Positions 2,020-58,021 of a stretch of 64,000 nt of DNA are shown one piece after another. Source of the DNA: Cornus controversa (lineage: Eukaryota; Streptophyta; Magnoliopsida; Cornales; Cornaceae); the NCBI GenBank assembly GCA_026545225.1, contig CM048845.1, positions 30,197,001-30,261,000 of the forward strand, in the 5' to 3' direction. How positions within the stretch are numbered: the stretch's first letter is position 1; each line of letters starts with the position of its first letter. The translations under genes and the position numbers were made by a program. The notes beneath the pieces are model-generated. The model had not been told where the DNA came from. It made no database searches and saw only the letters and a program-made list of their open reading frames with translations.

Positions 2020-3321
2020 TGTGAGAAATATAATTGTAATTGACAAATATCGGTGTCAAAACTTGTTGATCGAGTTGCAATTTTTGTTTGATCTTATGTC
2101 TCGATCTTCGGAGTTGAACGAAAAGTGTCTCGATATCGTGGGTTTGATGAGGACATCACTTAGAATAGGTATGTGAGTGAGGACACTATGTTTTGAAGTT
2201 TGGTGGGCTTAGTACTTGGAAAATACTTTAAATATAAAAATTAAATTTTTGCTAAGTCCCACCGGTCCCCAAATATGAGGACCGGTCCAACTTCTCACGG
2301 GACTTTCAAAATTCAACATGTCTGAAAAGTCCCACCGATCCCCAAATATTAGGACCAGTTCGACTTTTCTCAGGACTTTGAAATTTTCATGTATCTGCAA
2401 AAGTCCCAACGGTCCCCAATTTTTAGGACCGGTTCAACTTAGCAGATGCGTGCGAAAATTTCCTTTTTGATCCGAATTGATTTCTTAGTCAACCAAAACT
2501 TATCTAAAACTTTCCTTAGGTGTTTTAAACTTGTTTTTCAAGTAGACTAAGGATTCTAAACCTTATAAATACCTCTTTATGCTTCAATCAAAGTAGGAGA
2601 AAATAAGAGACTCAATGATTTACTGTTAGAGACAGGAATATATTTTTGTGAGCTAAAAGAGGAATTTATGAGAGAAAATCTTCATTGATCTTTATTCTTA
2701 AGAGCGCACACACACGGAGTGTTTAAGTTGTGATGTTTTTCTTCATCTGATCAACGGAATCTTCAAGATAACATCAGTCTAGAAAGTTTGATCAATAGCA
2801 GTAGAGGTGGTTCCTTGAAATTACAAGATTTTATCTAAAGAGGAAGAGAAACGATCACTACGAAGAGAATAAAATAGTTGCTGAGTATTTGTGTTCTTTC
2901 AGCTACTCTTCTGGAAGAATTGTGACGTTAGCCGGGAGTCTGCAACAGTTGGACGTGTTGTCGTAATTGTAAGCCTGAGGTGTTCCGCATCAAGTTCTTA
3001 TCAGAGTGGAGTGAGTGTGAGTCTGGGAGAGTCTGATATACTTTGCTTCGAGATAGTGGATTGGTTTCTCTGGGGTTTCTGCCTCACCCCCGTGATTTTT
3101 CCCAACTTGGGTTTTCACGTAAAATTCTTGGTGTCGTCTCTAACTTTTCCTTACTTGCTTTATTTATTTTGTGATTGGTTTGGATGCTTAATTGATAATA
3201 ATTGTGGGTAATTAATCAATCATAAAAATTGGGCAAGAAGACCTATTCACCCCCCTCTAGGTCTAAAGATTAGCATCTCACTCTAAATTAACTAAACTAT
3301 TTTCGCACCACGTAACTCACA
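2020..3321 (+). repeat. 3' LTR of the copia element
   Basis: The LTR starts TGTGAG at 2020, right after a polypurine tract, and ends CTCACA at 3321. These are perfect 6-bp inverted termini, which fixes a length of 1302 bp. A TATA box (TTATAAATA) lies near 2563-2571. Late in the LTR, near 3103-3135, is the copia-type stretch ending in TTTTCACGTAAAATTCTTG. The C-rich ATTCACCCCCCTCTAGG motif near 3246 recurs, inverted, in the two LTRs at 53792 and 58946. The matching 5' LTR is outside the window, so insertion age and target duplication cannot be read. Confidence 0.85.
2254..2440 (+). repeat. Tandem repeat with palindromic arms inside the LTR
   Basis: Units start at 2254, 2327 and 2401 (73 and 74 bp; the third is partial). 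Each carries ACCGGTCC, a short AT-rich loop, then GGACCGGT or a one- to two-base variant, so each can fold into a hairpin with an 8-bp stem. The array lies upstream of the TATA box, in the presumed U3 promoter part. Sirevirus LTRs are known to carry such palindrome arrays. Confidence 0.85.
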
Positions 3322-4993
3322 TCTTCTGCTCATCTCTTTCTTTTATATAAAGGTCATCTAGGGTGTTCTTTAAGTAAAAGAAAATAGGAAAGTGTTGAGA
3401 AGAATATCTGTCAAAATATTTTTTCTGACTTAAAATCTAATTTTGACTTTGAATAAGTGTGATTCACGAAATGTTCATGAAATACAAATATCTTGTGCTT
3501 CAAGTTAGCTTTCTACAGCCACTAAGTGTGTTCCATTTTGATAACTAAGTCAATAGATATGGTCAAATTACCATAACTGGTGTAATATTCGCGCAAAATA
3601 TTATGACTACTTTGACACGTGATTTTCACCCCTTAAAAGTTAGAATTAGGATTTCTTTGTGAAATACAAATCTGTTCCTTATGAACAAGATTTCTAAAAA
3701 CTCTAGGTTTGCATTAATCTGATACTCTAGCTGAAAGTTATGGCCCAAATAGTAAAGCTGCGCAGAGAAGTTGTGGACTTTATATTTGTTGAATTTGGGT
3801 CTTTTTCACAAACATCACCATAAACCTAAAAAGACACCAAACCATATTTATTAAATAAAATAATAGAAAATAAATTACTAACAAATCTAATTTTGAAGGT
3901 TTATTGTGTAAGAATTATGCACTTATCAGTGTCCTCATCATACTTACCTGTATTATATGATGTTGTCACCGATTTAACTACTTCCATGCACTTATGTGTC
4001 AGCTCGAATATGTTGATGATCGATACATAAGTTAAAGAAAATATTACAACTCAATCAATCCAATTTTGAACACCAAAATTCATCAATTACAAATTTATAT
4101 CTCACAAACCTCAAGGATCTCTTAGTAATTTACCCTAAAACTCAAATTATTTTCTGTATTTTTCATGCTTTAGTTATAAATGAATATTATATAATGAAAA
4201 TATAGTTAATATTGCTTTTACACTTTAGTGAATTTATATTATGAGTTGAAAATGCCCTAATTTGAATTATCTCATGCCAATCATCTTTTAATTATCTTCT
4301 TCAGGTTTTTATTAGGGTCTTGAACTGAAATACCCCTACAAAATTCGTGCATGAGGTGGCCAGTCTCATACACAAAACTTGAGGGGTATTAACAATTGAT
4401 AGCAACAAGCATAGAAGACAAAAGACAGAATAAAATAAATTCTAAAAGCTGAACAAAAAATCTCACTGAATCAAAATAACCGATAAATAAATAAATATGT
4501 GTCTTGTAATACAATTTGGAAGTCCCGTAACCCAATGACCCCTTTACCAGAATGAACAAGAATTTAAACTCTAATTTAAAATCAATAACCAAAATCTCAA
4601 AAGAGTTCATAGTTTAACTCTTGAATAAGAGGATAGGTTCCTACCCTGTAACCGATGAGAGGAGATATTTGCCATAACCAATCCTAGTACTCTATCCTCG
4701 CGGTGGAACCTGCCTAGGACCTGAAATATCAACAAGTGGGTTAAACCCATGAACAAGTTCTATCTACTACATCACAATCAGAGAACCAATATACACACCT
4801 TCAGTGTGAGGGACACAAGAGATAAATATAAATGTAAACATACAGGTCATTCATTGTTTAGTTCATGTTTCCAAACACAACAGTCATTCTTTATAATGTT
4901 CTATCAAAACCCTTATTATACAAAAGTGAACCATTCTTTAAGTTTAGCAAAAATAAACATAACATGTATAATATCAAGTTTAAGCAATCTTAA
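3322..4993. other. AT-rich repetitive sequence, no gene seen
   Basis: No coding frame of substance on either strand. The text near 4640-4760 resembles minus-strand gypsy LTR sequence, so this is probably the left part of an old LTR that continues past the solo LTR at 4994-7816. Its left end could not be found. Confidence 0.5.
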
Positions 4994-7816
4994 TGTAACG
5001 CCCCGATCCCCCGACTCCGGGAGACCGGAGGTTAACTCGTTCATTAGTCCCAATGGACCCTTTTTACCCTCTATAAAGTACCATGCTCTGATACCATTCT
5101 ATCATGCCCCAGAATCTAGACCATCGGGACTCCCCCTGGATTGACTCGAATCTCGAGTGTGAACCCGTTCTCTCACCCCGTGAACGACCTTAACCACACT
5201 GACATCACATTTAGGTACCATGATGTCGCGCCCCGATTCTTGAGAACCGAGGTGGGCCTGTCCATTAATCCCTAATGAACATATTAACCTCTATTTATCC
5301 CAGAAGCTTAACCACATACATACACATGTATATATACATATACAACTCAACATCAACTACTCCTAACGGGCCTTAACCATACAACCCTTCAAATTGGTTC
5401 TATCCCACACTACGGATATGAAACTCCTGGTAAGTTTTTGATCATGGCCTAAAAATAGAACCATTAAAAAGAGGGTTAAAAAAACTCAATTTCAAAAAAA
5501 AAAATCATCTAATTTCGATTTGAAACAAAGAAGATATGCCCGTTAGAAGTTGGTTAGAATTTTGTCAAATGCCTACTGTAAAAGAGCTCAAGCGCTTTAA
5601 ATAAAGGGATCAAGCGCTTTCACTCTCGAGACTAAGCCTCCAGATCTTTTACAAGGGTGATTGAGCACCGTAAAAAGAGATCGAGCACTGTTAATACAGA
5701 AGCTAAAATTCTGCAACCTGTACTTGACTAATTTTTAACCTAACTTCAAATTCAAATATCTCACAAACCATAAGTCCATTTGACTTAAAATTTGGCATGG
5801 ATCATCCTCAACATGTCTACTTTCCAACCTAATTAGAATCACCTAAAATTCAACTCTTGACCCAGATTACACACAAATCAACGGGCTTAGGTCAGATTAC
5901 CAACTCTTGCGCTAAAACATGCATATCTTACTCAATTTAAATCCAAACAAGGTCCATGACCCATCAAATTGAAGCTAATACAATTATCTTTCTATACATA
6001 AAATTCCATTCATACCTTAAACTCAAAAATGGACACTTATGGGCATGTGTCCCCCCAATGGCTACACAAATGCCTTAATGGCCATCAAGTATATCCACAT
6101 AACATACATCTCACAATTGAAATGTAATTCCATCATATTTTTTTTTACCATATTCATTCAACAACTCATGCATACATACATCTCATACTCCATTAACTCA
6201 TAATTATCAACACAAGAAGTCATAACTTAAGAGAAAAATGATCCTATGGTGCTATATATCTCCAACACATCCACATTTCTCAAAAGGTACATGTAATCCA
6301 TATGTTTTTCCAAGTTTATAGTCATTACAAGAATTCATGCATAAGGTTCAAAATGTAACAAATTCTACTATGACTACAGTTAGATAATTACCGTGCCACA
6401 AGCCAGCACAGATAGCCACAAGGTACACAATATCCAAAAGATTATCATACTCCAATTGAGTTCCCAAAATGCCCATAAAAGTTATGAAGTCCCTGTCATC
6501 ATCCTTGACGAATAACTTGAAAAATGTTGGGGGGGAGCGGGGTGAGCACCACGACGGCTCAGTAGAGATACCCCAACCCCACGTAAGTGCCAACTCGACG
6601 CCGACCTACATGAATACAAGTCATAGTATCGCTATCAGCTACATGGCATATGCTAGAGCATTTAGACATACATAGCATATTCAACACGCGAGCAACATTA
6701 TCAAATGAATGTTTTTAAGCAATGCATGTTTAACTCGATAACCTAGACCACACACACACCAGTGGTTCATGATTTATCAAAACTCTAACAAAAAGAGACT
6801 TGGGCGGGCATACTTCGAAGCCCCATGTTACATTTTCAATGAAAACCCCTCTTTGGGACATTTTATCAAACACCATGTATGCAACATGTTCATGGATAAT
6901 GTCAACACCACAAGCATCACCAAATAATGAAATTTAGCATACATTTACAAGGCTCTACACATTGGCATCAAATTACATGCTCAAGAAACACCAAATCATG
7001 CTTTTCACATAGCATTTACCACAAAGCTTCATACATGTCATACGTATATCAACCCTATAACATGTAATACACATAAATCACCTCTTTAACATGCAATCAT
7101 ATAACAAATGCAACAAGGAGAGGGAAACCCAACCTCCTAACTTTACCTAGCATGTTAACCCCCCAAGAAACCCATAATTCAACCTATAGAATTGACACTT
7201 AGGGAGGAAGAGATACCCCTACCTCAAATCCAAGCTTGGTTGTTGAAGACCCAATTTCTACTAAGCTTCAAACTCCTCCAATGACAACTTTTCGTGGATC
7301 AAATCGAAGAGGAGAGTGAGGGGAGCAACTTTAATTCTTAGCTCCACCCTCAAATCCCACTTCTAGACCCTCAAATTGAAGAAAGAATGAGAGAAGAGAA
7401 ATTTTGTAGAGAGAGAGAGATCCAGCTAAGAGAGAGAGAGAGCCCCAAAAATCTAACATTTTTCTTTCTTTTTTCATATATATATATATAATTCATATAT
7501 TCCACTTTGCAACTAAACCCTCAGTCTCTCCTCTTTTTGCTCATTGTTATGGTCACTTTGCATCTAATTGCAAACCATCATTTCCTCTCTTTTCAAAACT
7601 TTACTTATGCCCTTAAACTTACATTCACACCCCTATGCCACTCTCTAGTGTCCGTAGTTACCTCTCGAGGTACCCAGGTCCACTCTGGTCCCACACCCGT
7701 AATTGAAAACATAACAAGGATTATTTAAATCCACTATGCATGTCATTAAGCGACTAATCATGATTAAAAGTCACTGATCCGTAATTATAATTCAAAAAAA
7801 AATTTGGGTCGTCACA
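4994..7816 (-). repeat. Gypsy-type solo LTR
   Basis: On the plus strand the sequence starts TGTAACGCCCCG and ends GGGTCGTCACA, the usual form of an inverted gypsy LTR. Flanking 5-mers are CTTAA (4989-4993) and CCTAA (7817-7821), one mismatch, consistent with a target duplication. No internal region or second LTR follows, so it is read as a solo LTR. Its left end is unusual: related tails start at 4994, 5102 and 5224, and a perfect complement of the initiator-Met primer site (GCTCTGATACCA, 5084-5095) lies between the first two. GA and TA microsatellites lie at 7411-7495. Confidence 0.75.
5588..5700. repeat. Palindromic motif array in gypsy solo LTR
   Basis: TCAAGCGCTTT occurs exactly at 5588-5598 and 5610-5620; its core AAGCGCTT is a palindrome. 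Degenerate versions (TTGAGCACCGTAAA, TCGAGCACTGTTAA) follow up to about 5700. The array occupies the same kind of place as the palindrome arrays of the other LTR families in this window. Confidence 0.6.
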
Positions 7817-8035
7817 CCTAACATGCCACTATTTTTATCCTTTGATACCTTAATAGATATTGGCAATCCTGACATGCCTATGGCAATCCTTACATGCCTC
7901 CTTCAACTTCAGATTCCTTAATAGGTATTGGCAATCCTAACATGCTCTGGCAATCCTTACATGCCTCCTTTAACTTCAAATACCTTAATAGGTATTGGCA
8001 ATCCTAACATGCCATGACAATCCTTACATGCCTCC
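7817..8035. repeat. 67-68 bp tandem repeat array
   Basis: Three units start with CCTTAATAG at 7848, 7915 and 7983. Each contains GGCAATCCTnACATGCC twice in variant form. The solo LTR at 4994-7816 sits inside this array: the sequence left of the LTR (GCAATCTTAA) is a decayed match to GGCAATCCTAA of the units. The array is probably a part of an older LTR. Confidence 0.75.
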
Positions 8036-9224
8036 CAACCCAACTTACAACATAAAATAAGAACAAGGTGCATCATGATTTAATTTGCACAGAACAAAAT
8101 GATTTAAATTATCCGACATGCAATCATCACAATAAGACAACTCGTTTACAAATAAATTAAAATCAAGTATTTCATGAAAATTTATAACATCAAAGGAAAA
8201 TACATTCAAAGATATAAAATAACACAATTATCTATTTTAGAAGCAAACACCCAATCAATCCTCCAATTTATCTAAACCTTCGAGGGAGTCAAAGCCTAAC
8301 TCGAATTTAGGTTCTTGGGCCTATTTTGTTACTAAAACCATGCTAAAACATTCTGGAAATTTTCTGAAATTTGCAAGAATTTTTAAAATATTTTTTTTGT
8401 AAAAAGAAAATAAAACGTAATTTGAGGCATACTTTTACAACAGATACAACCACAAGGGAAACTCATTTTCACTTGAAATTTAAAAATCAGGTGTATTTCA
8501 TCCCTATAAAGTTACCTGAATTTTTTTTTAGAATTTTCTAGAATTTTAAAATATTTTCTAAAATAAAAGAAGGTGAAAAAATTCAATTTTAGACACTTTA
8601 AAAATCAATTTATTCACAAAGGGAGTTCATTCAAGCATGAAATTGAAAACCCAACTTCAATTAACCCCCAAGAAGTTACAATAAAAATTTGGGAATTTTT
8701 GGAATTATAAAAGTATTTTTAAAAAATGAATTTTCTAAATTTTCAAATTTTCAAAAATTTTAAAAAAAGAAGGATAATTCAGAATGGGCCCATATTGGAC
8801 CCGAAGGTGGGCCCCTGCGAGTGGGGCCCAAAAAATTTCTTTCCCGGCACCAGTGCCACGTGCTGGCCAGGCGCGTGGGAAAAGGCCTGCGTTGGGGTTC
8901 TTCCCCAACGCGCTGCTGGGGGTGTTCCGACGATGGTCCGGCCACCGTTCGCCTCCATTTTTGTGTCGTTCTCCTCCTCTCGACGTCGACTACCTATTAG
9001 TGTAAAAAGCCCCATCCAAAATGGCCCGAATCAAAAACCCCCAATTCACAAGTTCTAGGATTTTTTGCAAAATTTTCAAAAATTAACATCAAAATTTCCA
9101 ATGATCTAATTTTCAAAGGGTCAGGGTTGTTTACCTGTGCAATCCACAACATAAAAGATACAAATTAACATCCTTCACCCTCCTTGTATCATGCTATTAT
9201 GATTTCCATACGTATTACACACAT

Positions 9225-9226
<2 letters not shown>

Positions 9227-9266
<40 letters not shown>
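9227..9266. repeat. (TA)n microsatellite
   Basis: About twenty TA units in a row, inside the decayed LTR sequence. Confidence 0.9.
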
Positions 9267-9272
<6 letters not shown>

Positions 9273-11203: not shown

Positions 11204-11533
11204 GTATAGTTAGACTCCATGATCAACCAAAAATATATAATTATTATGATCTCCATGGCCAATATTTGCCCATTCATGTAAGCAATGACAGACATAGAAA
11301 ATTATGTAAGTGAGAGCAAAGTTGAGTATATTTACAATTGTAGGGTTAGTTTAGATAAAAAAATATATATGGGGGGACAAAGTTATATATAGTGAATTCT
11401 TTTTGTAATTTTAGTAGGGGCAAAGTGTAATTTTAATGAGATATTTTCATAATTTCATAAAACTATAGACTTATAATACAAAAGAAATAAATATTTTAGT
11501 GGAGGCATCTACCCCCACTGACTTGCACGTAAG

Positions 11534-41877: not shown

Positions 41878-44800
41878 TGTCACGCCTCGATTTCTGACTC
41901 GAGGAAATTGAGGGTGATTAAGTCATAACCCACGCTCCTAATCACAATTACACTTTCTGATATCTTGCTTGACACCAATCTGTCACGCCCCAATTTTCTT
42001 TCCCCAAAAATGGGGGTGATTGAATCACACGTTATCACCTCATTACATTACCATCGCCAATTCCTTATCTCATTCATCATTTTCATAACACAGCGGAAGT
42101 CTTATAATTTCACCATAGGCCCTTAAGTAGAATACATGAACTCTCAACACTAAACAAAAAATTTTTAAGCTCACATTCAGGTTTCAGTCGGCTGATAAAT
42201 GTCCCACCAGCCGGCCGAAACCTGGGCAATCCATCGGCTGGCTACCCTTCAGTTTTGGTCAGCTGAAGAGGCCCTTTCGGTTGGCTGAAGGGCTGTTTCG
42301 GCTGACCAAAATAGGTACTTGCAGCGTCTGTAGATGCAAATGTTCAGCATCTCATCATTTCAGTCGACTGATGGAAGTTTCAGTCAGCTAAAACTCTCTA
42401 GAAGCTGTTTTCCCCTATTTTCAATTCTCAATTCATCCTCCACAAAGTTCATAACTCAAAGGAACCATTCTAATCACGCATGCACCTCATTTTACCATTT
42501 TATCGACACAACTATTCTCACAAGTTTATACATGTGAAAATTAATCATAAATGAAGGATCATCATTTAACATGTAACATTATACCATGCTCGAAACCATA
42601 ATCATAATGTATGAAATCATAAGGCATAGATAACTTAAAAACGTATTTAAATGTATACAACCAAAAAGCATAAACAATACATGTTCTCGAAACACAAATG
42701 GTCTTTACATGTTTTTCACATGCATATAGTCCACAATCTGGACATGTATTCAAATAAAGGAAAATAAATTTTAAATGAAACAAAAATTCACTCCATTCCA
42801 ACTTTACCGTTGGGGAGACTCAGCCACTTCTTTTTCATTTCCAGAAAAGAGTTAATCCTTATGGGATGAGCAACCACACTCTTAGTAGAAAAGTCTAAAA
42901 CATAATTTTGCAAATTCTGTGAATGCCACATAAACATACAATTGCATTTAATCATGTTAAACAATATCCACATATCACAACCATATCATAAGTAACATGT
43001 CAATGCAACATGATATGTACAACTCCCTCATCCTCTCCACTTATCCATTGGTCTCCAATTGCCCTTGGACAAACCAATTCCACCTATCCAAGGCTCTTAT
43101 ACCAGTCCACCTCGTAGAAGGACTCTATTTTGGAGAGTATTCTCTTCCATTCTAATTAGGGCTCCTTTACTGGTCTACCCGTGAGGGTTTCATATACCGA
43201 ATTACCTCACCACTCGACAAGAGGGCTTACTACCCAATTGAGCTCACCACCCTCACTGTACTAATGAAGATGCATCCCACATGTTCAATCCAATTTACAT
43301 TCATAATTTAAAGATCAATGAGGCATTCCACATATATACTTGTACAAATTCTCATTTAATCATCACATGCATTTACATTGAACATGTCTCACATTTTTTA
43401 TATTTCACATAATGTCATATCTTTCACATTTCATATAATTCATATATTGACAATCAAATCATGATTTTCATTCAACATTCTTTCAAGACAATTTATCAAA
43501 CACATAAGCATCACCTTCACAAATATACATGAATTTGCACAATTCTTTCACAATTCAATCCCAACATGCTTCATAATTAACTATGGCAATTATAAACATG
43601 TAATTATCAAATCTAATATAATGAATTCATCAATTGGTATAATTAAGCTTGCTTTACTATTAAAAGAACATCTAATTATCCCATATAACCAATTAGTTGC
43701 CTTAATAACCAATATACTCATAAAAATCCTAGATTCTATGAGTTATATAACCACGTATGTGTCATTTTCCTCCCATATATGCAATATGGATGCACATATA
43801 CATAGCATAATATTTTCATGCATCTACCCATGCTTATGAATACTAAAAAGAAGTATTTAGCATGCTTCTCATCACATTCTAACACATATAGCGCATACAT
43901 GTTCCAAGACTTGCATAACACCTCATATATGCAAAACACTTCAACTTTAGCACATTTTTATCATGTTATAACCAATGCATACTTTCGATATATAGATAAA
44001 GTTAGCATGCATCTCATATTCACATTCTCGCATATAAACACATATATGTCACATCCTGCATATAGTCACATATGCATGTATACTAGCATAAATATAATCA
44101 TGCTTCCACTCAAGACATGCATTTACTACAAGTAACTAGTATGCTTTTCATTCACAATATATAACCACGTATATATTTTCCGTCACCATATATGTATTAA
44201 GAATATATAAAATATTTAGCACATCATAATCATGCTTTTCAAATGCTCGCCAATATCATATTCAAATATAAAGCATGCATTTCTACTACTACACCAATGT
44301 ATAATCGCATATACATTTCACCTATGCATAAATTCCACCTATGCATATAGAACAACACATAGCTAAATATATATGTAATTTAGCATACTTTTTACATGAT
44401 TTCAATCAATACCATACATGCATATCACGATGCAAATAAGCGATTAAATTTAACATGTCATCGCTCCCCAAACCCACACACATATATATATATGCATACA
44501 CACATATATATATTCTCACATCCCACGTATATACAATATCCACCTGTGCACACATATATATAAGCACCTATATATAGATATACACATACCACATATGATC
44601 AAATTAAGAACATATGCAAATTACCCAACGTAAGTAAAATATACGTAGGAGATAGAGGCAAAAATCAACTTGCCTTAAGTCTCGCTCTCCAATGAATCGG
44701 CGTCTGCAAAGTGGTCCATACCGAGCCCGGTCCAATCTCGTGTCCAAGTCACATGTGAACCCGCTCTCTTTCCTTATAATTTTTATGATTGGTCCAACTC

Positions 44801-47339: not shown

Positions 47340-49330
47340 ATCTGAATAAATCGTCCATTCATCCACCACCTCGCCAGTCGTAAGCCAAGTACGAATGGTC
47401 TTTTTCTCCCCATCCTTCTTTTGCTCTTCAATCACTATACTCACAAGAGTTGGTTGTGCGATAAGAGTAAACGGTCCATCATCCTCACTAAAATATAATC
47501 ACATTTCTAAGATATCCTCCATCATCTTCCACTCCCGTATGGCTATGCTTGCCAAGCTACCATATGACTTCCTACTTAATGCATCTGCCACCACATTGGC
47601 CTTTCCCGGATGATATTGTAAGTCGAAGTCATAGTCTTCCATGTATTCCATCCACCTCCATTGCCTCATATTCAAATCCTTGTGAGAAAAGGTATTTGAG
47701 ACTTTTGTGATCGAAAAACACTTCAAACTTTTCTCCATATAAGTAATACCTTCAAACTTTGAGTGCGAAAATTACCACCACCAATTCCAAGTCGTGTGTT
47801 GGGTAATTTTGTTCATGTGTTTTCAATTACCTTGAACCATACACCATTACTCTCTTAGTTTGCATCAACGCACAGTCCAAACCAATTCGTGAGACGTCAC
47901 AATAGATCGTGTACCCCAACTCACGTTCTGGAATAATCATTCCACACAAATTTCACTCCTTTTTAGGTAAGCTTGATCATTGGTGCCGCTAACCTTGAAA
48001 AGTCTTTCACAAACCTCTGATAATATTCAACTAATCCCAAAAAGCTTCGTATTTCAAATACGCTCTTAGGTCTTTCCTAACTCATCACCGCCTCTATCTT
48101 GGATGGACCTATGAAAACCCCTCCTTCAGACACAACATGCCCAAGGAACTTCACCTTCGCTAGCCAAAACTCACGCTTCTCGTATTTGGCATACAATTGG
48201 TTCTCTCTTAAAAGTTGTAATACTATCCTCAAGTGTCCCTCGTGCTCCTCTTTCGAGGACGAGTACACTAGGATGTCATCAACGAACACAATTACTAACT
48301 TATCCAAACACACATTGAACACTCTGTTCATCAAATCCATGAATGCTGCCAGAGTATTTGTCAAACCAAATGGCATCACCAAAAACTCATAGTGTCCGTA
48401 TCATGTGCGAAAGGTAGTTTTCTAAATGTCTGCCTCTCTAACCCCCAACTAGTAATATTCGGATCTCAAGTCTATCTTTGAGAAACATTTGGAACCATTT
48501 AATTGATCGAACAAGTTATCTATCATTGGCAAATGATACTTATTCTTGATCGTTGCCCGATTCAACTTCCGATAGTTAATGTAAAGTCGCAAAGACCCGT
48601 CCTTCTTCTCAGCAAAGAGAATCGAAGCTCCCCAATGCGAAGTACTAGGATATACAATCCCTTGTCTAGTAGCTCTTGTAATTGGTCTTTTAATTCAATT
48701 CAGCCGGTGCCATAAAAATGGGCGGTATCTGGAGCAAGTTCTATCACAAACTCCACTTCTCATTTCAGAGGCAACTCCATCAAGTCCCCCAGAAATACAT
48801 CAAAAAACTCACATACAACATGAGGAAACTCCCCATGTGTTCCATCCTCACCATCAACTAGCAAGCTTGCTAAGAAATACCCAAGTCCTTTCCGATCACT
48901 AGGAGTATGCAAAGACGATAAGTAGAAGTCATCTTAGTCTCCCACAAAACAAATACTAACACCCTTCGATGTACACAAGGTCACTCTCCCCCGATAATAA
49001 TATATATTGGCTTTGAAGGTAGATAGCCAATCCATACTCAATATCACATCAAACTTAGACATGTCAAGGAGGATGAAGTCAAACACTAATAGATGTCCCA
49101 AAATCTCGATCTCGCAAGGCTAACAAACATTACCCAAAGTCACCCTACCACCAACTAACGTATCAATGGATAAAATTGAGTCCAAAGATGACACCTCCAA
49201 CCCCAAAGCACAAGAAAATGCAAATAAAATGATGAATGTGATGCACCTGAGTCCACTAAAACCTTATCCCACAAGCTAGATACAAGAAATATACCTCGAA
49301 CAACTGACAGTCCTGCCAAGGTCTCTACTG
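47340..49330 (-). pseudogene. Gypsy protease, reverse transcriptase and RNase H remnant
   Basis: On the minus strand, RT is seen at 48382-48077 with VMPFGLTN, the active-site motif FVDDILVYS and [11 protein letters not shown]. RNase H ends at 47738-47499 with [33 protein letters not shown]. Upstream, 48720-48400 holds the finger and palm scraps (DKFVI-type sequence) and 49330-48900 weak protease sequence, all interrupted by stops and frameshifts. RT motifs themselves are preserved, but no frame spans the domain. Confidence 0.9.
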
Positions 49331-49389
49331 GAACAAGAGTGAAGGCATGACCTTATGCTCTCTGGCCCTATTATCCTATACCCTGATAT

Positions 49390-50526
49390 CCTGACTGCTG
49401 ACTAGGAGCGTTAGACGCGACTCCTCTATTCAGTGCCTACGAACTCTGAACAAATGGCACTATCTGTGGTGGTGGCAATGCCCTAAAGCCCGACTGTGGA
49501 GTAGTAGGCTACGTAGGATGCTGCTGTGAACCAACCCCACTCTGAGTACCCTTCTTCTGAGGATAATTCCAACTGATGTGCCCCATCTGCTGACAATGGT
49601 AACACTTCTTGTTTGCCAATGTAGTAGTCTGCCCTTTAGCCTATAGTGTTCGGACTTCTAATAGTTAAAGCACACCACTCTAGATCGTAAAGATCTAGTG
49701 GGTATAGTCATAGATGGTGTCAATTGGGCTTGTTGTTGCCCTTGTGAAAATGACCCACCATCTCTTTGCTTCTTCCTAGCACGATTACCGGAAGGGACCC
49801 CGTGCTCCTCAATTAGTTCTTTGCCTCCCTTATCCTCTGATTATCATTATCGCGCTCCTTAACTATCAATGCTCTTTCCACTACCACAACGTAGCTCATC
49901 AAACCCAAGACTGCCACTTAATCCCGTATGAATCTTCAGAGACCTCTCATGAACTGCTTGATCTTAAGCTCTTCAATTGGGATCATCTCTCGTGCAAAAT
50001 GAGCTAAAGATGTGAAATTGGTCTTGTATTCCATTACTGCCATCGAACCTTGAACCAACTCATAAAATTTCTGCCTCAGATTGTCCTTTACCATCACCGA
50101 AATGTACTTCTCAAAGAAAAGCACTTGAAACATATCCCAATCCATCATCTCAATGTCATGGTAGTTTCCTATAAACTTCCACCAATTGCTGGCCTCGCCC
50201 TTAAGGTAATGGGCGGCCACTTTCACCTTTAGGTCCTCCTCTATCTCAAGTACAGTAAGAAGTGTCATAATTTTGTCCAACCAATTTTCTGCCACCATAG
50301 GATCGGATCCTCCTGAGTATGTTGGTGGACTGTGCTTCTTGACATGTCCTAATGCCGTTACCATTCGACTAGGAGGCGCTGCTCTTGGCGGAGCTTATGT
50401 TGCTTGTGTTTTCTCTTGCATCTCCCTAGCTATTTGTTGTATAGTCGCAACCATGTCGTGCATAAATTGTTCTCCATCTATAGGAGCTGTTGTCCGTACT
50501 TCTCCACAAGCTCTACGGGGTGGCAT
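49390..50526 (-). pseudogene. Gypsy gag remnant
   Basis: The minus-strand ATG at 50526 starts MPPRRA, a usual gypsy gag start. The capsid-like piece at 50364-49936 reads HSPPTYSGGSDPMVAENWL and LKGEASNWWKF. The zinc knuckle near 49600 reads CYHCQQMGHISWNY: the last cysteine of the CCHC set is replaced by tyrosine. Several shifts occur between the pieces. Gag would package RNA in the particle. Confidence 0.88.
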
Positions 50527-50798
50527 CTTTCTATATAGATGAAAAAATGACACTTTAAAATCCAAAGCACAAGTATCATTGTCCAATTCTATTTATGCAC
50601 ACTCACAACATGCTAAGTTACTTCATAAATAGCATGTTATATGAACAAGTAAGCATATAAGTATTTCCATGTAATATGTACTTATCCCTCAATCTATAAT
50701 TATATCCTCAAGTTCAAAATTTTGGAATTCATTAAATCTTTTCAAGTCAAAACGTGGTTCGACCTTTTCCCATCGTCCCTAGGTATTCAAACCCGGTA

Positions 50799-50813
50799 GC
50801 TCTAATATCAAGT
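50799..50813 (-). promoter_or_regulatory. Degenerate primer-binding site of the gypsy element
   Basis: The minus strand reads ACTTGATATTAGAGC directly after the LTR, two changes from the initiator-Met complement TGGTATCAGAGC. A better copy of the site (TTGGTATCAGAG on the minus strand, near 50904-50916) lies one tail module further into the LTR. Confidence 0.75.
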
Positions 50814-53478
50814 TGTCACGCCCTGATTTTCATCTTTCAAAAACCAAAAGTGATTAAGCTACTCATCCATTCTCCTAATCATAATTACTCTTGATATCAT
50901 ACTCTGATACCAAGTTGTCACACCCCGATTTTTGACACCCAATTAAGAGCAAGGGAAATAAGGGTGAACCGTGCTTATCAACCATCAATCATACAAATTG
51001 TGGAAGCTATCTATACATTCAAAATTATACATTGGTCTATACATCGTATACATACTCATTCTTGATCCAACTTGTCAATATGTAGTTCAGTCGAGTTTTG
51101 GTTGGTTGAAACCCCCTTTCGGTTAGCTAAACATTGGGCTCAACTAAACTTCAGGTTCCCAGATCTGTTGGTCGGTTGGAGGGTAATTATGATCAATCGA
51201 AAGGGAGCTTTCGGCCAGCTGAAACCCTCATTCAGTCGTTCGAAACAGGTACCTCATTTGCAAATGTTCGAGATCTCACACTTTCGGGTGACTGCTGCAA
51301 AGCCTAAGCGACTGAAAGTTCAAAAATGCCTCAAACCTAATTTTCATAAGTCTATATGCAATCTCTATTATCATACACTCATTTGCAATCTTAAATATGA
51401 TCAAAAACTACACAAATCCATACATTTGAGGCTCATAGGTGCAAAGTCCATAATTTTCACAATTTCACTCCAAACCTACATTATCCTTGAAACCATAACA
51501 TCCACAAATGATCTATAATGTACATAGCATGATAAAAGAATACAATCTAGTCTCCAACATTCATTCTCACAATTTCATACATAAGGAAGCTTAAAAACCC
51601 ATCATACATTTGATTCCCACAAGGTCATATATAATGGAATTCATAATACATGGAAGGTTGAGAAAATACATAATCCTCATTTCAAATATCAATCCTACAT
51701 TTCCATACATAAAAAGACTAAAAGGGTCCATTATGCATACATATCCCAAAAGTCATTCATCTATGAGTTCATTGTACATATATCTCTCAAAAGTTCAACA
51801 TGAGTCAAGTGTAGCAATTACATTTGAAATTCGTAAACTTGAGGTGAACCAAATGTAAATGCAACACTTTTAGTTATAGTCGACATTCTACAAGCCGACA
51901 TGGACTCAATATACACATATCCAAAAAGGAATTTAAAAAAAGCCCAAAAATCCACTCTAGAGCTCTATGCCTCGTCCTCCATGGGAGCTTTATCTAAAAA
52001 GAGTTTGGGGAAAGGGAGTGAGCATACGATTATGCCCAATAGGAATGATCCGCCCGACTCTACCTAACTCAGGCAACCATGCATGAATGCATATGAAGTC
52101 TCTACATGACTATATGACAAGTATTCATGCTTTTCACACTTAAAACATACAAGTTTTAGAAATCATACGTGATGCTTCACATTTTAATACATGACAATTT
52201 ATATGAGGTCATAACTCACAAGTAAACTCACACCACGTATAATCGAAAATCAATTCAACTGAAGGCTTCTGCTTGTCACAATTCCATAATAAGATCGAAA
52301 CCACAAACTCTGTTTATGCTCTACGAGTTGCTAACCCGACAGAAGCAACATCCGCTTGGCCAAGTTTTGGGTTTTGCACCCTAGGGCTCCAACCCCTTCT
52401 TAATTCTCACACATGCCCCAAAAACTGCATTTTTCACATAATGTACACTTATCATATAAATGCACAAAATTCACAATTTTCACAATTCTCACCAAATGCA
52501 TAACCTATGTCAAGTTTGTGCACACACTTTCACCTCAAGCTTGTCATAATGAAAATCACTCATTTCATAGAAATCACACCCAATACATTTTCAAGAAAAT
52601 ATTCTTCATGCATAAATTCAACATTTGAAATCAAATTTCACAAAACTCCTCAAATGAACCCAAAGTAGCAATATTGCATTCATTGACATCAACTACACAT
52701 ATACAATACATAAATTTCAACCAAAACATGATAGACATTTCATATATATGCAATAAGTTCATGTTTCCACAAAATTCTCAAAATAACGTTTCATGTCACA
52801 AGTATGTGACCTATAGAATCTAAATAGGGAAGAGATTCACACCCCTAGCTCAAACCTCAAGCTTGGAAGCCAAGTTCCAAAAATTCCAGCCTTTTCTACC
52901 TTGCCAAACATAGACTTTGTTCGGTCCAAAGTGTAGCCCGCGCCGAGATGAGCAATCCACTTGCCTTCAGCATTTCCCGATTCCTAGCTTAACACATCCA
53001 AAATGTAGAGAGAATGGAAAGAGATGAAGTGGGAGAGTTAGATAGAGAGAGAGAGAGCGCTGTAAAAATGAAATATCTTAGCCCCTTCCAGATATTTATG
53101 TCTCCTTGGGGTGCAAAATGACCGAAATGTCCCAAAGCCACTTAACGTACCCTTCTGACCTCCGATTTTAATTTCGAAAGCGGTTATGACTCCGAAATCG
53201 CTTCCTTAACTCTCTAAATATTTCGTTTGGTTTATAACCAAAAATTATATTTTTCCAAAAAAAATTTGAATTCTCAAGCCCATCAAACCACGTCCTAGGG
53301 CCTCGTTGACCCAAAAAGTCAAACTTCTCCAAATATTTTCAAAACTTTTCAAAACCTTAAAACAACTCACAAAACATGTTTCTCATCATTAAAACGTGCT
53401 AAACATCATTTAAAATGCAATTAGGGCAAAAATGATTCTTAAAATGGATACCAGTCAAAATTGGACCCAGTCTCTACA
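50814..53478 (-). repeat. 5' LTR of the large gypsy element, 2.7 kb
   Basis: The plus strand starts TGTCACGCCCTG and ends GACCCAGTCTCTACA. A second tail start lies at 50917 (TGTCACACCCCG), about 103 bp on, with a primer-site complement between. The inner 1.6 kb match the 3' LTR; the part at about 51086-51330 does not, and instead resembles 42170-42410. It is 238 bp longer than the 3' LTR. Confidence 0.82.
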
Positions 53479-53791
53479 TATCATTTGTGTATCTATCCAT
53501 TGAGGGATATTCTCTACTGTACCAAAACTCTTATTCAACTTATTCGAGAGGAAGACCAAGTGATGCACTTGGCAAAGAAGCCCAACTCGTGAGCTTAGCA
53601 AAGAAGTCTTGGTGAGGTTTTCATTGAGCAAGGAAGTCCAAGTTATAAGCTTAGCAATTGTAAAGGTTTGCTTTCCACCTTTAAGGGAAGCTTGATAGTG
53701 GAAATCTCAAGATGTGCTCTTAAGTCATGGACGTAGGCAAGAGGGGTCGAACCATGTAAAAATTATGGTGTCATTTGTGTTACCCAAGAAT
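53479..53791 (+). repeat. Copia LTR fragment, plus strand
   Basis: GGACGTAGGCAAGAGGGGTC and CCATGTAAAAATTATGGTGTC near 53726-53774 are typical of a copia LTR's U5 part in plus orientation. TTGTAAAGGTTTGCTTTCCACC at about 53666 matches the minus strand of the next LTR (near 54044-54065), so the fragment is a relative of that LTR in opposite orientation. It is cut on the left by the gypsy LTR and on the right by the Sirevirus-like LTR. Confidence 0.65.
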
Positions 53792-55233
53792 TGACCCTAG
53801 AGGGGGGTGAATAGGGGTCAAGGGCAAACTATGATGTTTTCTCCACAAATTTAAATTGCAATAAGCAAATAAAATTATGCAAATAATAGATCAAGACAAT
53901 AAATAAATTGCACAATGATAAGGAGCTAGAGATAGAGAAAATCAAACGCAAGTGACTCAAGATGTAGCGTGGTTCGGAATCTCCTACTCCACGACTCAAG
54001 ATCCCTCTTGAGATTTCTCAAATCCACTACAACTTCTCCTTTCGGGTGGAAAGCAAACCTTTACAATGAAGCTAACAAGCTCCTCCTTTCTCTTGCTAAG
54101 TGAAGTCCTCCACTTAGTCTTCTAGGGTTCAACCAACCCTTTACAATGAATGATAAGAGAATTTGAAGTACAAATGTTGTATCTCTCAAAGATAAAATTC
54201 TCAAATAAAAGCTCACAACTATAGCTGTATCTGATTCTCAAGTTTGAAGCTCAAGACTTAATTGAATGGGAGTGAGAAGAGTGAATCATATATTGAATGC
54301 TTGTATCTCTGGTAGTTATATATTTAAATGCAGAACAAGAGATATATATATAGTCACTCTCACGAAAATAGCTGTTGGAAGGTGGGTGAAGACATTAAAT
54401 GCACCAACTAGCCGTTTAATTTTGAATCTGGGAAAAAGCAGTCGACTTTATTTGAGCCTTCAAAGAGTCAGATTCACGCTGCCTAAAAGAGTCGACTTTC
54501 ACTAATGCATAAGGCGACTATTTTATCAAATCTCATAAACTAAAATAGAAAGAAAGTCTTCTATATGTTTTGAGATAGTCTTCTATCTTAGTGCTCTAGA
54601 AATGACATTTTCATAAAAGCACAAACTAAAATAGAAAGATAGTCTTCTATATGATTTGAGATAGTCTTCTATCTTACTACTCCAGAAAAGCCATTTTCAC
54701 AAAAAGTTCATAAACTAAAATAGAAAGATAGTCTTCTATATGATTTGATATAATCTTCTATCTTGCTACTCTAGAAATATCATTTTTGCACTGCTTAAAA
54801 GAGTCGACTTTATAATTCTACTAAGTCGACTGATTTTGGAATTCATTTGAAAGGCAACTTAGTCAAGGCATTCATGAGCTCAAAAATTAATCTCAAAAGC
54901 TAAGAGCCACTCATGAAAATTTAGAAATATGATGCATGTGATTTAAGATTCAATTTTAGACACTGAGCTTCAAACAGGTAAATCAAATTTAGCTTTACAA
55001 AAATACCTAAGCTCTCACCATATCCTATATACCCCAATGCTTCTTTGTTTTGCATAATTCTTCAAGCTTGAGGTGCAAATTCCTTCTTCATTGACATTCA
55101 CATGAGATGAAAGCTCCTTTGAATATATATGATCATTCTAGTCAATCACTCAAAAAGATGTTAGTAATTAACACCATTAATGGTTTGTATCATCAAAATT
55201 ACGAGATTACCCTTAGGTTAAATCTTTGGGTCA
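53792..55233 (-). repeat. 3' LTR of the Sirevirus-like copia element, 1442 bp
   Basis: The plus strand starts TGACCC and ends GGGTCA, perfect 6-bp inverted termini. On the minus strand a polypurine tract (AAAAAGGGGGAGATTG) directly precedes it. It contains four GTCGAC palindromes (54441, 54491, 54803, 54825) and an 86-89 bp tandem repeat. The paired 5' LTR lies beyond 64000. Confidence 0.9.
54536..54790. repeat. 86-89 bp tandem repeat, three units, in the LTR
   Basis: CTAAAATAGAAAG starts units at 54540, 54626 and 54715; each has GTCTTCTATATG followed by AGTCTTCTATCTT-type words and a CTCnAGAAA end. Confidence 0.85.
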
Positions 55234-56047
55234 ACAATCTCCCCCTTTTTGATGATGACAAAACATTGATGTATTCAAATAAAATATAGAGTGCATTATA
55301 AAATGCTCCCCCTATCGATATGCACAAGATGAACAATATGATCAATAAATTGATAAACATAACATCTTTCCATATGATCATGCTTCAAAAAATTGACTTA
55401 AATAAAATGAATGAGCATAATGAGTCTCCCCCTATCAATATCCTTTCATACCACACTTATAAGAAGATTTAGCATGCTTAAAATATCACATGGAAGCAAA
55501 TTTTAGGCATAAACATTTAGAGACATTCACCACATCCAATAAGCCAATATCAAAATCCCATCATCCTTAACACAATGAAACAATATTTTATAAATGAGTT
55601 CTCATAGTATTCATAATGCATTATATGCATTAATCATTATACATTCATCATTGAATTCATTGGATAACAATAACAAACATATAAGCAGGATACTTTGGAG
55701 GAAAAGACAATTTTTGAAGAAGCATGCATATAGACATCATTCATTAAAAAAGCTTAAAGTAAAGTGAGCAGTCATATAATTTGTCCATAAAGCATATGCA
55801 TAACATAATGAGACAAAGGACATATCAAACATCACATCAAAAATTTATCCCCCTTTGTCGTCATCAAAAAGGAGTAACTTATCTGCTAAGGAGCTGGTGG
55901 TGGTGGAGAAATGCCAAAATGCCTTTTGATTTCCTCAAGTGCATTCAGCTGAGCTTGATAGGCATTGAAATCGATGCTCATCTTTTCAAATCCTTCATGT
56001 ATTTCCTTTTCAAGGTGAGTAACTTGTCCCTCAATCCTGTCAACCCT
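55234..56047 (-). other. Multiple polypurine tracts before the 3' LTR
   Basis: Plus-strand CT-rich words TCTCCCCCTTTTT (55238), GCTCCCCCTATC (55305), GTCTCCCCCTATC (55424) and TCCCCCTTTGTC (55848) are G-rich polypurine tracts on the element's coding strand. Only the first touches the LTR. Repeated tracts of this type are a known feature of Sireviruses. No ORF lies here. Confidence 0.82.
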
Positions 56048-57130
56048 TCATTCAAGTCTTTCCATATTGCCCAAATGAGTATCAATGCTTTCTAGTCTAG
56101 AAAGAACTTGATGAAGCACAGAAGGATCAGTGGGAGGTAATAGAAGAGGTGTCTCATCATCTGGTAGTTCATCCTCATTCATAGGATCATTATCACTGCC
56201 TTCTTCTGCATCTGCATCGTCATCAACTTGGCCAGCCGGCTTGTACCAAAAACCTTGATCATTTTGCTTAAATTTCATTCTTTTGAGTGTAGAGTCATTA
56301 AGCCGATCAATTTTAGCCACAGGACGCATTATGGTTTCGGTGGCGATAGAAACTCCAAAAAACTCAAAAAGCTTGGTGAAGGGAAGAGCATAGACAAGAT
56401 GGGATCTGCCTCTCTTTATACACTCTTTCATGTGGAAGAATATGAGATGGGCAAGGTCCAACTTCTTTTCATTCAGTAAACACCAGATAATGAAAGCTTC
56501 CATATAGGTAACATCTGTTCGGCTGCCAGATTTAGGTAAAATATTGTACCCTATAATGGTATGAAGCAACCTAGCTTCAAGAGTGAGCTGATTGGCTTTA
56601 ATCTTAGCTTTTGTAGAGATAGAGGAGTCACCACACATCTGTCTTAGGGCATATATAGGTTCAAAGTCAGGATACAATGCCCAATCATTTGTAGAGTAGT
56701 ACTGAAAATCACCTTTAGGAATGTCAAAAATTTCTCTCAGTGTAGACTTGGTGAACTCAATTTCTTTGCCTTTGACATATGAGTACATAACATTTTTCTC
56801 CCTTTCATCTTGCTCCAAATGAGCATAGAAAAGCTTAATAAGTCTTGGATAATGGAATGTATCAAGTGCAACAAATTGTCCCCAACCAATTTTGTCAAAG
56901 AAAGCATATGTATTTAAATGATTTTCAGCACAGATACTGGGTGAGACAACTTTACCTCGTTCAACAGCAAAGTGAAGAAATTTGCGTTTGTACCATGTTT
57001 GAAATGAATGATCACGAAAAAGAGAGAGAGAAGATGATGCGGGTGAAGTCGCTATAAATGGTGGTGGAGCCGATGCTGGAATGAGCTGTTCATGACGGCG
57101 CTTGGTTCGCCGATCACGGGATTCTGCCAC
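56048..57130 (-). CDS. Envelope-like ORF of the Sirevirus-like element, intact, 360 codons
   Basis: One uninterrupted minus-strand frame downstream of pol, where Sireviruses carry an extra ORF often called envelope-like. Residues 1-35 are basic then Ser/Ala/Pro-rich. The middle (about 50-270) is a compact domain with VKGKEIEFTKSTLREIF and LEARLLHTIIGYNILPK, which I recognise as the plant-transposon-associated domain often seen in such ORFs. The end has an acidic run (DDDADAEEGSDNDP, near 305-325) and a short heptad-like tail (LSRLESIDTHLGNMERLE). I see no signal peptide and no clear membrane anchor, so an envelope function is doubtful. Its openness contrasts with the decayed pol of the same element. 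Confidence 0.85.
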   Translation of the reverse strand: MAESRDRRTKRRHEQLIPASAPPPFIATSPASSSLSLFRDHSFQTWYKRKFLHFAVERGKVVSPSICAENHLNTYAFFDKIGWGQFVALDTFHYPRLIKLFYAHLEQDEREKNVMYSYVKGKEIEFTKSTLREIFDIPKGDFQYYSTNDWALYPDFEPIYALRQMCGDSSISTKAKIKANQLTLEARLLHTIIGYNILPKSGSRTDVTYMEAFIIWCLLNEKKLDLAHLIFFHMKECIKRGRSHLVYALPFTKLFEFFGVSIATETIMRPVAKIDRLNDSTLKRMKFKQNDQGFWYKPAGQVDDDADAEEGSDNDPMNEDELPDDETPLLLPPTDPSVLHQVLSRLESIDTHLGNMERLE

Positions 57131-58021
57131 GGTGAGGTTCTATTTTCCGGCAGTGGATCATCCTCCCATAGTTCGTGGAGGCATGATGCATCGGGCAAGA
57201 GAGAAAATGCAAGATGATAAATTGTACCCCAAAGAAAAATGCAGAATGGTTGGTGAAGAAGAAAAAAATGAATTCCCAAGCTGATGATTAAAGAGAGAGA
57301 AAGAATTTTGAAAAGATTACCATCAGTGGGTCACTGGCTCAGATTCGGCAATTTAGACTAGGTAATTTCATAGAGGCGTGAGGAAGAGAGCAAGCCCTAA
57401 GTCGACTGAGCAATAAAAGGAGATGGGAAAAGAAATAAAAAAAATGACTTAAACAAGCAACAGAGAAAGGAGACTAAAAGAAGTAGGAAAGTCTGCTTTT
57501 CGAAAAGGGAAAGTCGACTTTCTCTTTTGAGAGAGTCGACTGTGTGTTATATGCTATATCAACACACTTTTGCACCTTTTTGATCATTTTCTTTTAGAGT
57601 ATATTTCAAAAATGAAAGAGAATAAGACCTACCCATCTGATCTTGATAAGATAAAGTTGACAGCCATAAGAGAATTATAAAGAAGACTTTGAAAAATGTT
57701 AAAATCGACTTAAAAAAAATTTACTTTGTAATAAAAGAAAGTCGTCTGTTAAGGAAGTGTAAAGTCGACTTTGGAATCAGATAAGGTTGACTGCCCCAAG
57801 GAATTAAAAAAGTTGACTTTGCTATTACATAGAGTCGACTTCCCCAAAAAAAATAAAAGAAGGGAAAGAAAGAAAAAGAAAAAAAATTAAAACGAAGGAG
57901 CTTAAGGAGTCGACTTTTTCAGCACTGAAAGTCGACTGATTATCCTTGCTTGAAGTCCAAAAAGGCTCTGTCAAAAATAGTCGACTTTAAATAAAGGAAG
58001 AGTCGACTTTTTCCTGAAAAC
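57131..58021 (-). promoter_or_regulatory. Spacer between pol and the envelope-like ORF with nine GTCGAC palindromes
   Basis: GTCGAC occurs at 57401, 57513, 57535, 57764, 57834, 57909, 57931, 57980 and 58002, mostly as AAGTCGACTT or GAGTCGACTT, plus one-base variants between. The same motif occurs in the LTR of this element. The spacer codes for nothing I recognise; its purine-rich filler at 57840-57900 is low-complexity. It might act as an internal promoter for the ORF below; that is inference. Confidence 0.6.

What the first reader, a model, noticed from the sequence alone, without database searches (positions are those of the whole stretch)
2020..58021. Different LTR families each carry their own array of short palindromes
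Seen directly: ACCGGTCC/GGACCGGT in the copia LTR at 2254-2440; AAGCGCTT at 5588-5620; TCAATCGATTGA types at 18240-18290 and 32225-32335; TTACGATGCATCGTAA types at 38411-38690; CAGTCGACTG/CAGCTG at 42170-42410 and 51086-51330; AGTCGACT at 54441-54830. Known: Sirevirus LTRs have palindrome arrays. New here is that gypsy LTRs in the same DNA do the same with other words. Inference: these arrays may be modular binding sites for host factors that dimerise, or sites kept by the replication cycle.
Basis: partly seen in the sequence, partly recalled or inferred. Interest (0 to 1): 0.75.

Follow-up and report, generated by a model that had tools for sequence, protein, structure and literature searches.

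The report
Paired palindrome sites in plant retrotransposon LTRs
Several families of plant jumping genes carry, in or beside their control regions, short mirror-image DNA words that contain CG, and copies of a word often sit 20 to 22 base pairs apart (for one shared core also 16 apart), which looks like a common way of docking pairs of protein dimers.

Summary
The palindromic words are real, but the regular feature is spacing. In the window, same-word near-palindromes peak at 22 bp; 252,400 other bases of the same genome repeat this (15 of 47 pairs at 20-23 bp; 20 shuffles give 0 or 1). Genome-wide, CGATNNATCG pairs occur 36,208 times against 7 for the reversed palindrome; of the first 100 listed, 24 are 16 bp, 52 are 21-22 bp and 13 are 37-38 bp apart. 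AGTCGACT: 1,685 against 59, 37 of the first 50 at 21-22 bp. GACCGGTC: 1,439 against 10, 49 of the first 50 at 20-21 bp. A same-composition CG palindrome gives 26 pairs, one at 22 bp. The 2.2 and 54 kb arrays (probably also 18/32 kb) are Sirevirus-type copia, where palindrome arrays are known; 38, 42 and 51 kb are gypsy. AAGCGCTT (5.6 kb) is not a widespread word. Copies within a family protect words little or no better than spacers. Best explanation: docking sites for cooperating dimers of CG-reading DNA-binding factors. No factor was identified.

The parts
2254..2440 (+). Sirevirus-type copia LTR, word GGACCGGTCC-like (core ACCGGT), three pairs each 20 bp apart, repeated every 73-74 bp
   Evidence: same word in random locus L064 at 20 bp; 1,439 GACCGGTC pairs genome-wide
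2010..3262 (+). Sirevirus-type LTR: PPT-like AGGAGGAGATTG at 2010 (1 mismatch), LTR start about 2022, polyC integrase signal at 3246, TATA-like 124 bp after the array
   Evidence: copia RNaseH relative (53-54% to the element at 58 kb) at 17-676 +
5588..5620 (-). single AAGCGCTT pair 22 bp apart in a possible gypsy LTR; not a widespread word
   Evidence: 4 such pairs in the genome, control 3
17890..18656 (-). probable Sirevirus 3' LTR with TCAATCGATTGA word (18241; second, 3-mismatch site 21 bp on at 18262), Sirevirus PPT at 18657
31892..32635 (-). second copy of the same LTR (77.6% identical to 17890-18622), words decayed, spacings 25, 25 and 12 in the scan
38411..38690 (-). gypsy LTR, word TTACGATGCATCGTAA, 8 sites in 4 pairs 21-22 bp apart
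   Evidence: LTR related to the 51-53 kb LTR on both sides of the array
42183..42392 (-). gypsy LTR, word TTTCRGYCGRCYGAAA, 7 sites: pair, triple, pair, spacings 20-23 bp
   Evidence: 29 further genomic copies used of 40 scored among 466 candidates
51097..51297 (-). gypsy LTR, same word class, decayed sites 21-22 bp apart
   Evidence: 29 further genomic copies used of 40 scored among 700 candidates
48080..50394 (-). gypsy gag (49939-50394) and RVT_1 (48080-48400) of the element whose 5' LTR carries the 51 kb array
   Evidence: Pfam PF03732, PF00078; gag relatives in 10 fetched loci besides the window's own L031
54439..54860 (-). Sirevirus 3' LTR array: AGTCGACT pairs 22 bp apart, plus three tandem units each holding a GATAGTCTTCTATC-like pair 22 bp apart
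   Evidence: TATA-like 78 bp after the array
57399..58009 (-). second AGTCGACT array of the same Sirevirus, between pol and the PF20167 gene; eight pairs at 22 bp and one at 23 bp in the pair list, with differing spacers
   Evidence: sites allowed up to 3 mismatches of 10
56048..57136 (-). PF20167 gene in the env-like position, downstream of the second array
   Evidence: E 1.2e-26
53780..55246 (-). Sirevirus 3' LTR with terminal PPT AGGGGGAGATTG (55235) and polyC integrase signal (53797); further AGGGGGAG copies at 55306 and 55426
58022..63757 (-). copia pol pieces (protease side, integrase, RT, RNaseH) of that Sirevirus

Best explanation
The arrays are modular double-strand DNA binding sites. 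Each 10-18 bp palindrome holding CG binds a homodimer of a DNA-binding protein. Palindromes of the same word lie 20-22 bp apart, about two turns of B-DNA, so that two dimers sit on the same face and hold each other. The sites drive transcription: in the three Sirevirus-type LTRs they lie 74-124 bp before a TATA-like box, and in one element a second array lies in front of the PF20167 gene. Words differ between families because the factors (or members of one factor family) differ; several families share a CGAT-NN-ATCG core with family-specific outer bases. Shown: the dyads, the CG content, the spacing, the positions. Inferred: that a protein reads them, that it is a host factor, that its effect is activation.
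For: Spacing peak in the window and in 252,400 other bases (15 of 47 pairs at 20-23 bp, in 11 loci, 4 of the 15 in three of nine random 10-kb stretches; 20 shuffles give 0 or 1). Genome-wide counts with word-specific spacing: CGATNNATCG 36,208 v 7 (16, 21, 22, 37-38 bp), AGTCGACT 1,685 v 59 (22 bp), GACCGGTC 1,439 v 10 (20 bp); control ACTCGAGT, same composition as AGTCGACT with CG at the dyad, 26 pairs of which one at 22 bp. Twenty distinct spacers, some close relatives of each other, among 29 of the 30 AGTCGACT pairs listed at 22 bp. With strict settings, 18 of 43 pairs with CG and 0 of 15 without CG lie at 20-23 bp, in DNA with CG obs/exp 0.51. Outer bases of 35 CGATNNATCG sites are complementary more often than in other cores (0.62 v mean 0.30 over 92 cores; fully paired triplets TCT, TTA, CTT, GGG, TTT). 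In most families complementarity between paired words does not run past the words (outer mean 0.31, inner 0.30, background 0.26). Positions relative to TATA-like boxes. A second, weak PF20167-like stretch (L069, E 3e-5) lies beside an array of another word.
Against: No binding protein is known, and no binding, expression, methylation or chromatin data were available. Non-palindromic 10-mers in the window also peak at 22 bp. In the looser scan of locus flanks 58 bp came first (21 cases, 22 bp had 18), not followed up; in the strict scan 58 bp has 1. Looser settings also show pairs without CG at 20-23 bp. In the gypsy LTRs the arrays sit 175-206 bp before the assumed LTR 3' end, and a TATA-like box follows within 300 bp in one of three, so they may lie downstream of the start site. 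16-bp spacing is about 1.5 turns, not the same face. Words are hardly better conserved than spacers within families. Arms of a pair are as complementary to each other (0.74) as each is to itself (0.71), so pairing itself does not separate dimer sites from hairpins; the ACCGGT units (0.61, 0.50) and the L008 word (0.50) do continue past the word. Arrays grow partly by tandem duplication. Genome-wide counts include many copies of few families; the reversed controls lack CG; and spacing was tallied only for the first 50-100 places, all on contig C1.
Confidence: 0.52

Rival explanations
1. RNA hairpins: two copies of a self-complementary word make a stem-loop in the transcript, and the structure is what matters, either as a target for small-RNA silencing or as a regulatory RNA element, as proposed for maize Sireviruses.
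For: Folded as RNA, the four arrays tried (of seven) are more stable than all shuffles: z -6.2 (38 kb), -6.5 (42 kb), -6.2 (2.2 kb), -2.6 (57.7-58.0 kb). Maize Copia LTR structures were linked to more smRNAs (PMC10760457, passages). ACCGGT units and the L008 word extend as hairpins.
Against: A hairpin needs arms complementary to each other, not arms that are each a palindrome; any palindrome pair folds, so the z-scores are expected under both readings. Complementarity stops at the word edge in most families. A loop does not need 22 or 16 bp exactly.
Confidence: 0.16
2. RNA dimerisation codes: self-complementary words let two transcripts of the same family pair by kissing and be packaged together; different words keep families apart.
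For: Words are self-complementary and differ between families; retroviral dimer signals are palindromes (recalled). The gypsy arrays lie 175-206 bp before the assumed LTR end. 22 bp is two turns of an A-form helix (recalled).
Against: In the Sirevirus-type LTRs the arrays lie before the TATA-like box, and in one element before an internal gene, not in the 5' leader. CG in the strictly paired words has no reason in RNA. Many pairs share the CGAT core, a poor code.
Confidence: 0.1
3. By-product: arrays spread by tandem duplication and by copying of a few successful families; spacing is inherited and has no function.
For: Tandem units at 2254-2440 and 54533-54786; copies of one family keep the whole array; most GACCGGTC pairs listed at 20 bp share related spacers; non-palindromic words also repeat at 22 bp in the window.
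Against: The same spacing recurs with different words and with about 20 different spacers for one word, in copia and gypsy LTRs; random duplication does not by itself keep dyads or CG.
Confidence: 0.14
4. Silencing landmarks: the words are read by the host, for example by a methyl-CG reader, to mark the LTR for repression.
For: CG-containing words and more transition-type change in words than in spacers.
Against: An element would gain by losing such marks, yet they are multiplied. CG decay is expected in any methylated repeat (methylation was not measured).
Confidence: 0.08

Closest known systems
Sirevirus repeated motifs (RM boxes), Bousios et al. 2010, PMC2829016 (abstract and passages seen)
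   Same: Clusters of a family-specific palindrome in the LTR upstream of TATA, and extra copies beside the env-like gene in some elements. Published words include ACAATCGATTGT (Tnd-1), close to TCAATCGATTGA here, and CACCGGACTGTCCGGTG (OPIE-2).
   Different: The passages seen do not describe a fixed distance between copies or pairs, and treat RMs as a Sirevirus feature with a CGG-CCG core (Tnd-1 excepted). Here AGTCGACT and CGATNNATCG lack that core, gypsy LTRs have arrays too, and spacing is regular.
Palindromic structures in maize Sirevirus LTRs (Bousios et al. 2016, not held; known here through passages of PMC10760457)
   Same: Palindrome clusters in copia LTRs that fold strongly.
   Different: [quoted passage not shown] in this genome gypsy LTRs have arrays. 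Spacing not treated in the passages seen.
Retrosat2, a long-LTR rice element (PMC3485330, passages seen; the likeness to the 38-53 kb LTRs is recalled)
   Same: Long LTRs with putative cis motifs.
   Different: The string palindrom does not occur in that paper's text; a CTTTTT tandem repeat is reported.
CGG-N-CCG dyads of zinc-cluster factors and plant LBD factors (recalled, not tested)
   Same: Inverted CG-containing half-sites read by dimers.
   Different: No factor identified here; the commonest core counted is CGAT.

Membership tests
Sirevirus (element 53.8-63.8 kb) | PPT AGGGGGAG followed by AT/TG at the 3' LTR | tested here: met
   AGGGGGAGATTG at 55235, 0 mismatches
Sirevirus (element 53.8-63.8 kb) | several PPT copies clustered before the 3' LTR | tested here: met
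   further AGGGGGAG at 55306 and 55426 on the same strand
Sirevirus (element 53.8-63.8 kb) | polyC-rich integrase signal at the LTR end | tested here: met
   TTCACCCCCCTCTAG at 53797, 0 mismatches; the letters were read off this window, the feature's name is from PMC2829016
Sirevirus (element 53.8-63.8 kb) | PBS TATCAGAGC after the 5' LTR | not tested
   5' LTR lies beyond the window; not fetched
Sirevirus RM box (54 and 57 kb) | palindromic repeated motif, at least eight copies, in the LTR upstream of TATA, with extra copies near env in some elements | tested here: met
   7 sites in the LTR and 19 before PF20167, allowing 3 mismatches of 10 to AAGTCGACTT; TATA-like 78 bp after the LTR array
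Sirevirus RM box (54 and 57 kb) | CGG-CCG core signature | tested here: not met
   word is AGTCGACT; Tnd-1 is also an exception in PMC2829016
Sirevirus (2.0-3.3 kb) | PPT, integrase signal, copia pol upstream | tested here: met
   PPT with 1 mismatch at 2010, signal exact at 3246, RNaseH relative at 17-676
Sirevirus (18/32 kb) | PPT plus AT/TG | tested here: inconclusive
   AGGGGGAGAT followed by TC instead of TG (1 mismatch); no pol could be assigned to this LTR pair
Ty3/gypsy (51 kb element) | gag and RVT_1 of the Ty3 type | tested here: met
   PF03732, PF19259, PF00078
Ty3/gypsy (38 and 42 kb LTRs) | homology to a gypsy LTR; gypsy gag beside it | tested here: met
   38 kb: 74-78% to the 51 kb LTR; 42 kb: 74-77% over 86-121 bp at the LTR end and gag relatives in 5 of its genomic loci (L006, L009, L011, L019, L028)
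Tekay/Del chromovirus (38, 42, 51 kb) | RT phylogeny and chromodomain | not tested
   lineage name recalled from LTR ends and the PBS only
Ty3/gypsy (5.6 kb LTR) | LTR end plus PBS, homology to a proven gypsy LTR | tested here: inconclusive
   LTR end and PBS motifs present but about 130 bp apart; 69% over 136 bp to the 38 kb LTR

The most novel reading that the evidence does not exclude
Two superfamilies of plant LTR retrotransposons share one cis-regulatory grammar: a CG-containing dyad (often CGAT-NN-ATCG, with outer bases acting as a family address) repeated on a fixed 16 / 20-22 bp lattice, read by a diversifying family of cooperating dimeric factors, and word identity turns over while the lattice stays.
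Probability: 0.3. Interest if true: 0.85.

Novelty: new variant of a known kind. Interest (0 to 1): 0.72.

Why it matters
It turns a loose remark (LTRs contain palindromes) into a quantitative rule with a built-in test: CG-containing sites about two helical turns apart, with covarying outer bases. With 36,208 close CGATNNATCG pairs counted in one genome, a host factor that reads them would face a very large pool of competing sites.

Tried and rejected
Counting perfect palindromes alone: weak signal. Conservation of words against spacers within a family: little or no support. An earlier version gave a false p of 9e-8 because loci matched on the minus strand had not been turned; searches are discarded, orientation was fixed. 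Relatives in viral contigs: pattern matches (4 and 6) but none confirmed. Rfam at gathering thresholds: no match. AAGCGCTT as a family word: rejected. The 30501-30750 array came top of the palindrome scan as TGACGCGTCA but is a tandem repeat of TGACGTGGCA, not a palindrome. Never answered: CAATCGATTG pairs genome-wide and genomic copies of the 38 kb, 57 kb and 5.6 kb arrays as DNA queries. The 58-bp distance that led in the looser flank scan was not followed up.
Full report
What was checked. The words are there, several of them degenerate. The window lies at C1:30197001-30261000 of a 772-Mb genome held as G000. Its content (nested LTR elements with PF20167, RVT_2, RVT_1 and Retrotrans_gag) is that of a plant genome; the species is not known to me.

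Which elements. The 53.8-63.8 kb element is a Sirevirus-type copia on the minus strand: pol pieces and a PF20167 gene, terminal PPT AGGGGGAGATTG, extra PPT copies and the polyC signal. The 2.2 kb array lies in another Sirevirus-type LTR. The 18/32 kb LTR pair follows a Sirevirus PPT with TC where TG is expected, so it is only probable. The 38, 42 and 51 kb arrays lie in gypsy LTRs: related LTR ends like ATCGGGGYGTGACA, followed at 38 and 51 kb by a tRNA-iMet primer site (at 42 kb none within 2 mismatches), and, for 51 kb, gag and RVT_1. That gag has relatives in 10 fetched loci besides the window's own. The name Tekay for this group is recalled and was not tested.

Pairs in the window. In one motif scan the AAGTCGACTT sites (up to 3 mismatches) at 57.4-58.0 kb have neighbour spacings 42, 26, 22, 22, 22, 121, 26, 22, 15, 22, 23, 22, 26, 22, 75, 22, 49, 22; the 38 kb sites 21, 73, 22, 72, 22, 18, 22; the 42 kb sites 23, 48, 22, 21, 62, 20; the 2.2 kb sites 20, 53, 20, 54, 20. 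A scan blind to words (near-palindromic 10-mers alike to each other) finds 7 pairs at 22 bp and at most 3 at any other distance from 10 to 80; non-palindromic 10-mers, however, also repeat most often at 22 bp (122, next 107). Over four settings 22 bp has 7, 9, 5 and 8 pairs and background maxima are 3, 3, 2 and 4; 60 local shuffles of one setting give at most 2 at 22 bp and at most 5 at any distance.

Outside the window. In 252,400 bases (nine random 10-kb stretches plus two 1.4-kb flanks of 58 loci; the two loci that are the window itself were dropped), 15 of 47 strict pairs lie at 20-23 bp, 4 at 16 and 6 at 37-38; 20 shuffles give 0 or 1 at 20-23. The 15 come from 11 loci; the flanks lie beside LTRs and share families, so they are not fully independent of each other; 4 of the 15 are in the random stretches. 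A looser scan of the flanks (all 60 loci) put 58 bp first (21) and 22 bp second (18). New words seen: CTTCGATGCATCGAAG, TCTCGATTGATCGAGA, CTTCGATTAATCGAAA and GGGCGATCGATCGCCC types.

Genome-wide. CGATNNATCGN{4,34}CGATNNATCG: 36,208 matches against 7 for the pattern read backwards, which is also a palindrome but has no CG; of the first 100 places, in 32 clusters, 24 at 16 bp, 23 at 21, 29 at 22, 3 at 37, 10 at 38, 11 elsewhere. AGTCGACT: 1,685 against 59; of the first 50, 30 at 22 and 7 at 21, 13 elsewhere; 20 distinct spacers among 29 of the 30, some differing by one or two bases. GACCGGTC: 1,439 against 10; of the first 50, 42 at 20, 7 at 21, 1 at 17, most of the 20-bp ones with related spacers. 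Counts are of copies, not of independent origins, and the listed places are all on C1 for the three positive words.

Anatomy of the word. Over 350,393 bases held, CGAT is the only half-site among 92 with at least 8 sites that combines an excess of 20-23 bp neighbours (8) with outer bases complementary well above the mean (0.62 against 0.30); ATAT and TATA repeats have 0.67-0.68 but only 3 and 2 such neighbours among about 270 close ones; GCAT and GAAG reach 0.58 with none. Strict same-word pairs with CG: 18 of 43 at 20-23 bp; without CG: 0 of 15; looser settings do show some pairs without CG at these distances. The 42 and 51 kb words, read over 29 copies each with a C/T and G/A rule, are 4-8 of 8 paired against a background of about 1.8; against the window copy the score rises in 10 of 13 words, stays in 1 and falls in 2.

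Words change, flanks stay. The 38 kb and 51 kb LTRs align on both sides of the array (38105-38221 with 50814-50931, 78%; 38892-40531 with 51785-53478, 74%), but the array region gave no alignment and the words differ (TTACGATGCATCGTAA against TTTCRGYCGRCYGAAA). This is one pair of LTRs, a hint only.

Mechanism. A homodimer explains the dyad, and cooperation of two dimers explains 20-22 bp. An RNA hairpin explains neither well: each arm need not be a palindrome, and complementarity ends at the word edge in most families, though not in the ACCGGT units or the L008 word. The four arrays folded are more stable than shuffles, but that follows from paired palindromes in any case. Position favours transcription in the Sirevirus-type LTRs (74-124 bp before a TATA-like box) and before the PF20167 gene. 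In gypsy LTRs the arrays lie 175-206 bp before the assumed LTR end, with a TATA-like box in one of three, so the start site is undecided. The 16-bp spacing of the CGATNNATCG class is not explained by same-face binding.

Literature. Nine library searches showed, among the papers listed (25 of 114, 15 of 27, all in the others), no title or abstract start on fixed spacing of LTR palindromes or on palindrome arrays in gypsy LTRs. I saw listings, and passages of PMC2829016, PMC10760457, PMC11963269 (reference list only), PMC6911290 and PMC3485330. Bousios 2016 is not held. Most subscription papers are not covered, so novelty is provisional.

Noticed in passing
38105-38221, 41878-41996, 50799-50931 (minus strand): The LTR end ATCGGGGYGTGACA occurs twice about 102 bp apart in three related gypsy elements, and in the 51 kb element each is followed by a primer-site-like sequence.
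   Followed up: partly
L069:8026-8250 and 8871-9071: A weak PF20167-like coding stretch (E 3e-5) lies beside an array of another word, GGGCGATCGATCGCCC, as in the window's Sirevirus.
   Followed up: no
30501-30750: Dense tandem repeat of TGACGTGGCA (ACGTGGC, G-box-like by recall), 11 near-matches in 300 bp.
   Followed up: no
L065:7006-7930: Tandem array of AAACGATCGATCGCTT words spaced 32 and 56 bp (88-bp unit), so the CGAT core also occurs outside the 22-bp lattice.
   Followed up: no
27362-27572 and 31075-31287: 92% identical short repeats with a primer site beside the right one, probably the LTRs of a young, small copia element nested in the area.
   Followed up: no
L057:1276-1403 next to the 51-kb-type array: TTACGATGCATCGTAA-like sites lie about 100 bp from CRGYCGRCYG-type sites in one locus, possibly a mixed array.
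   Followed up: no
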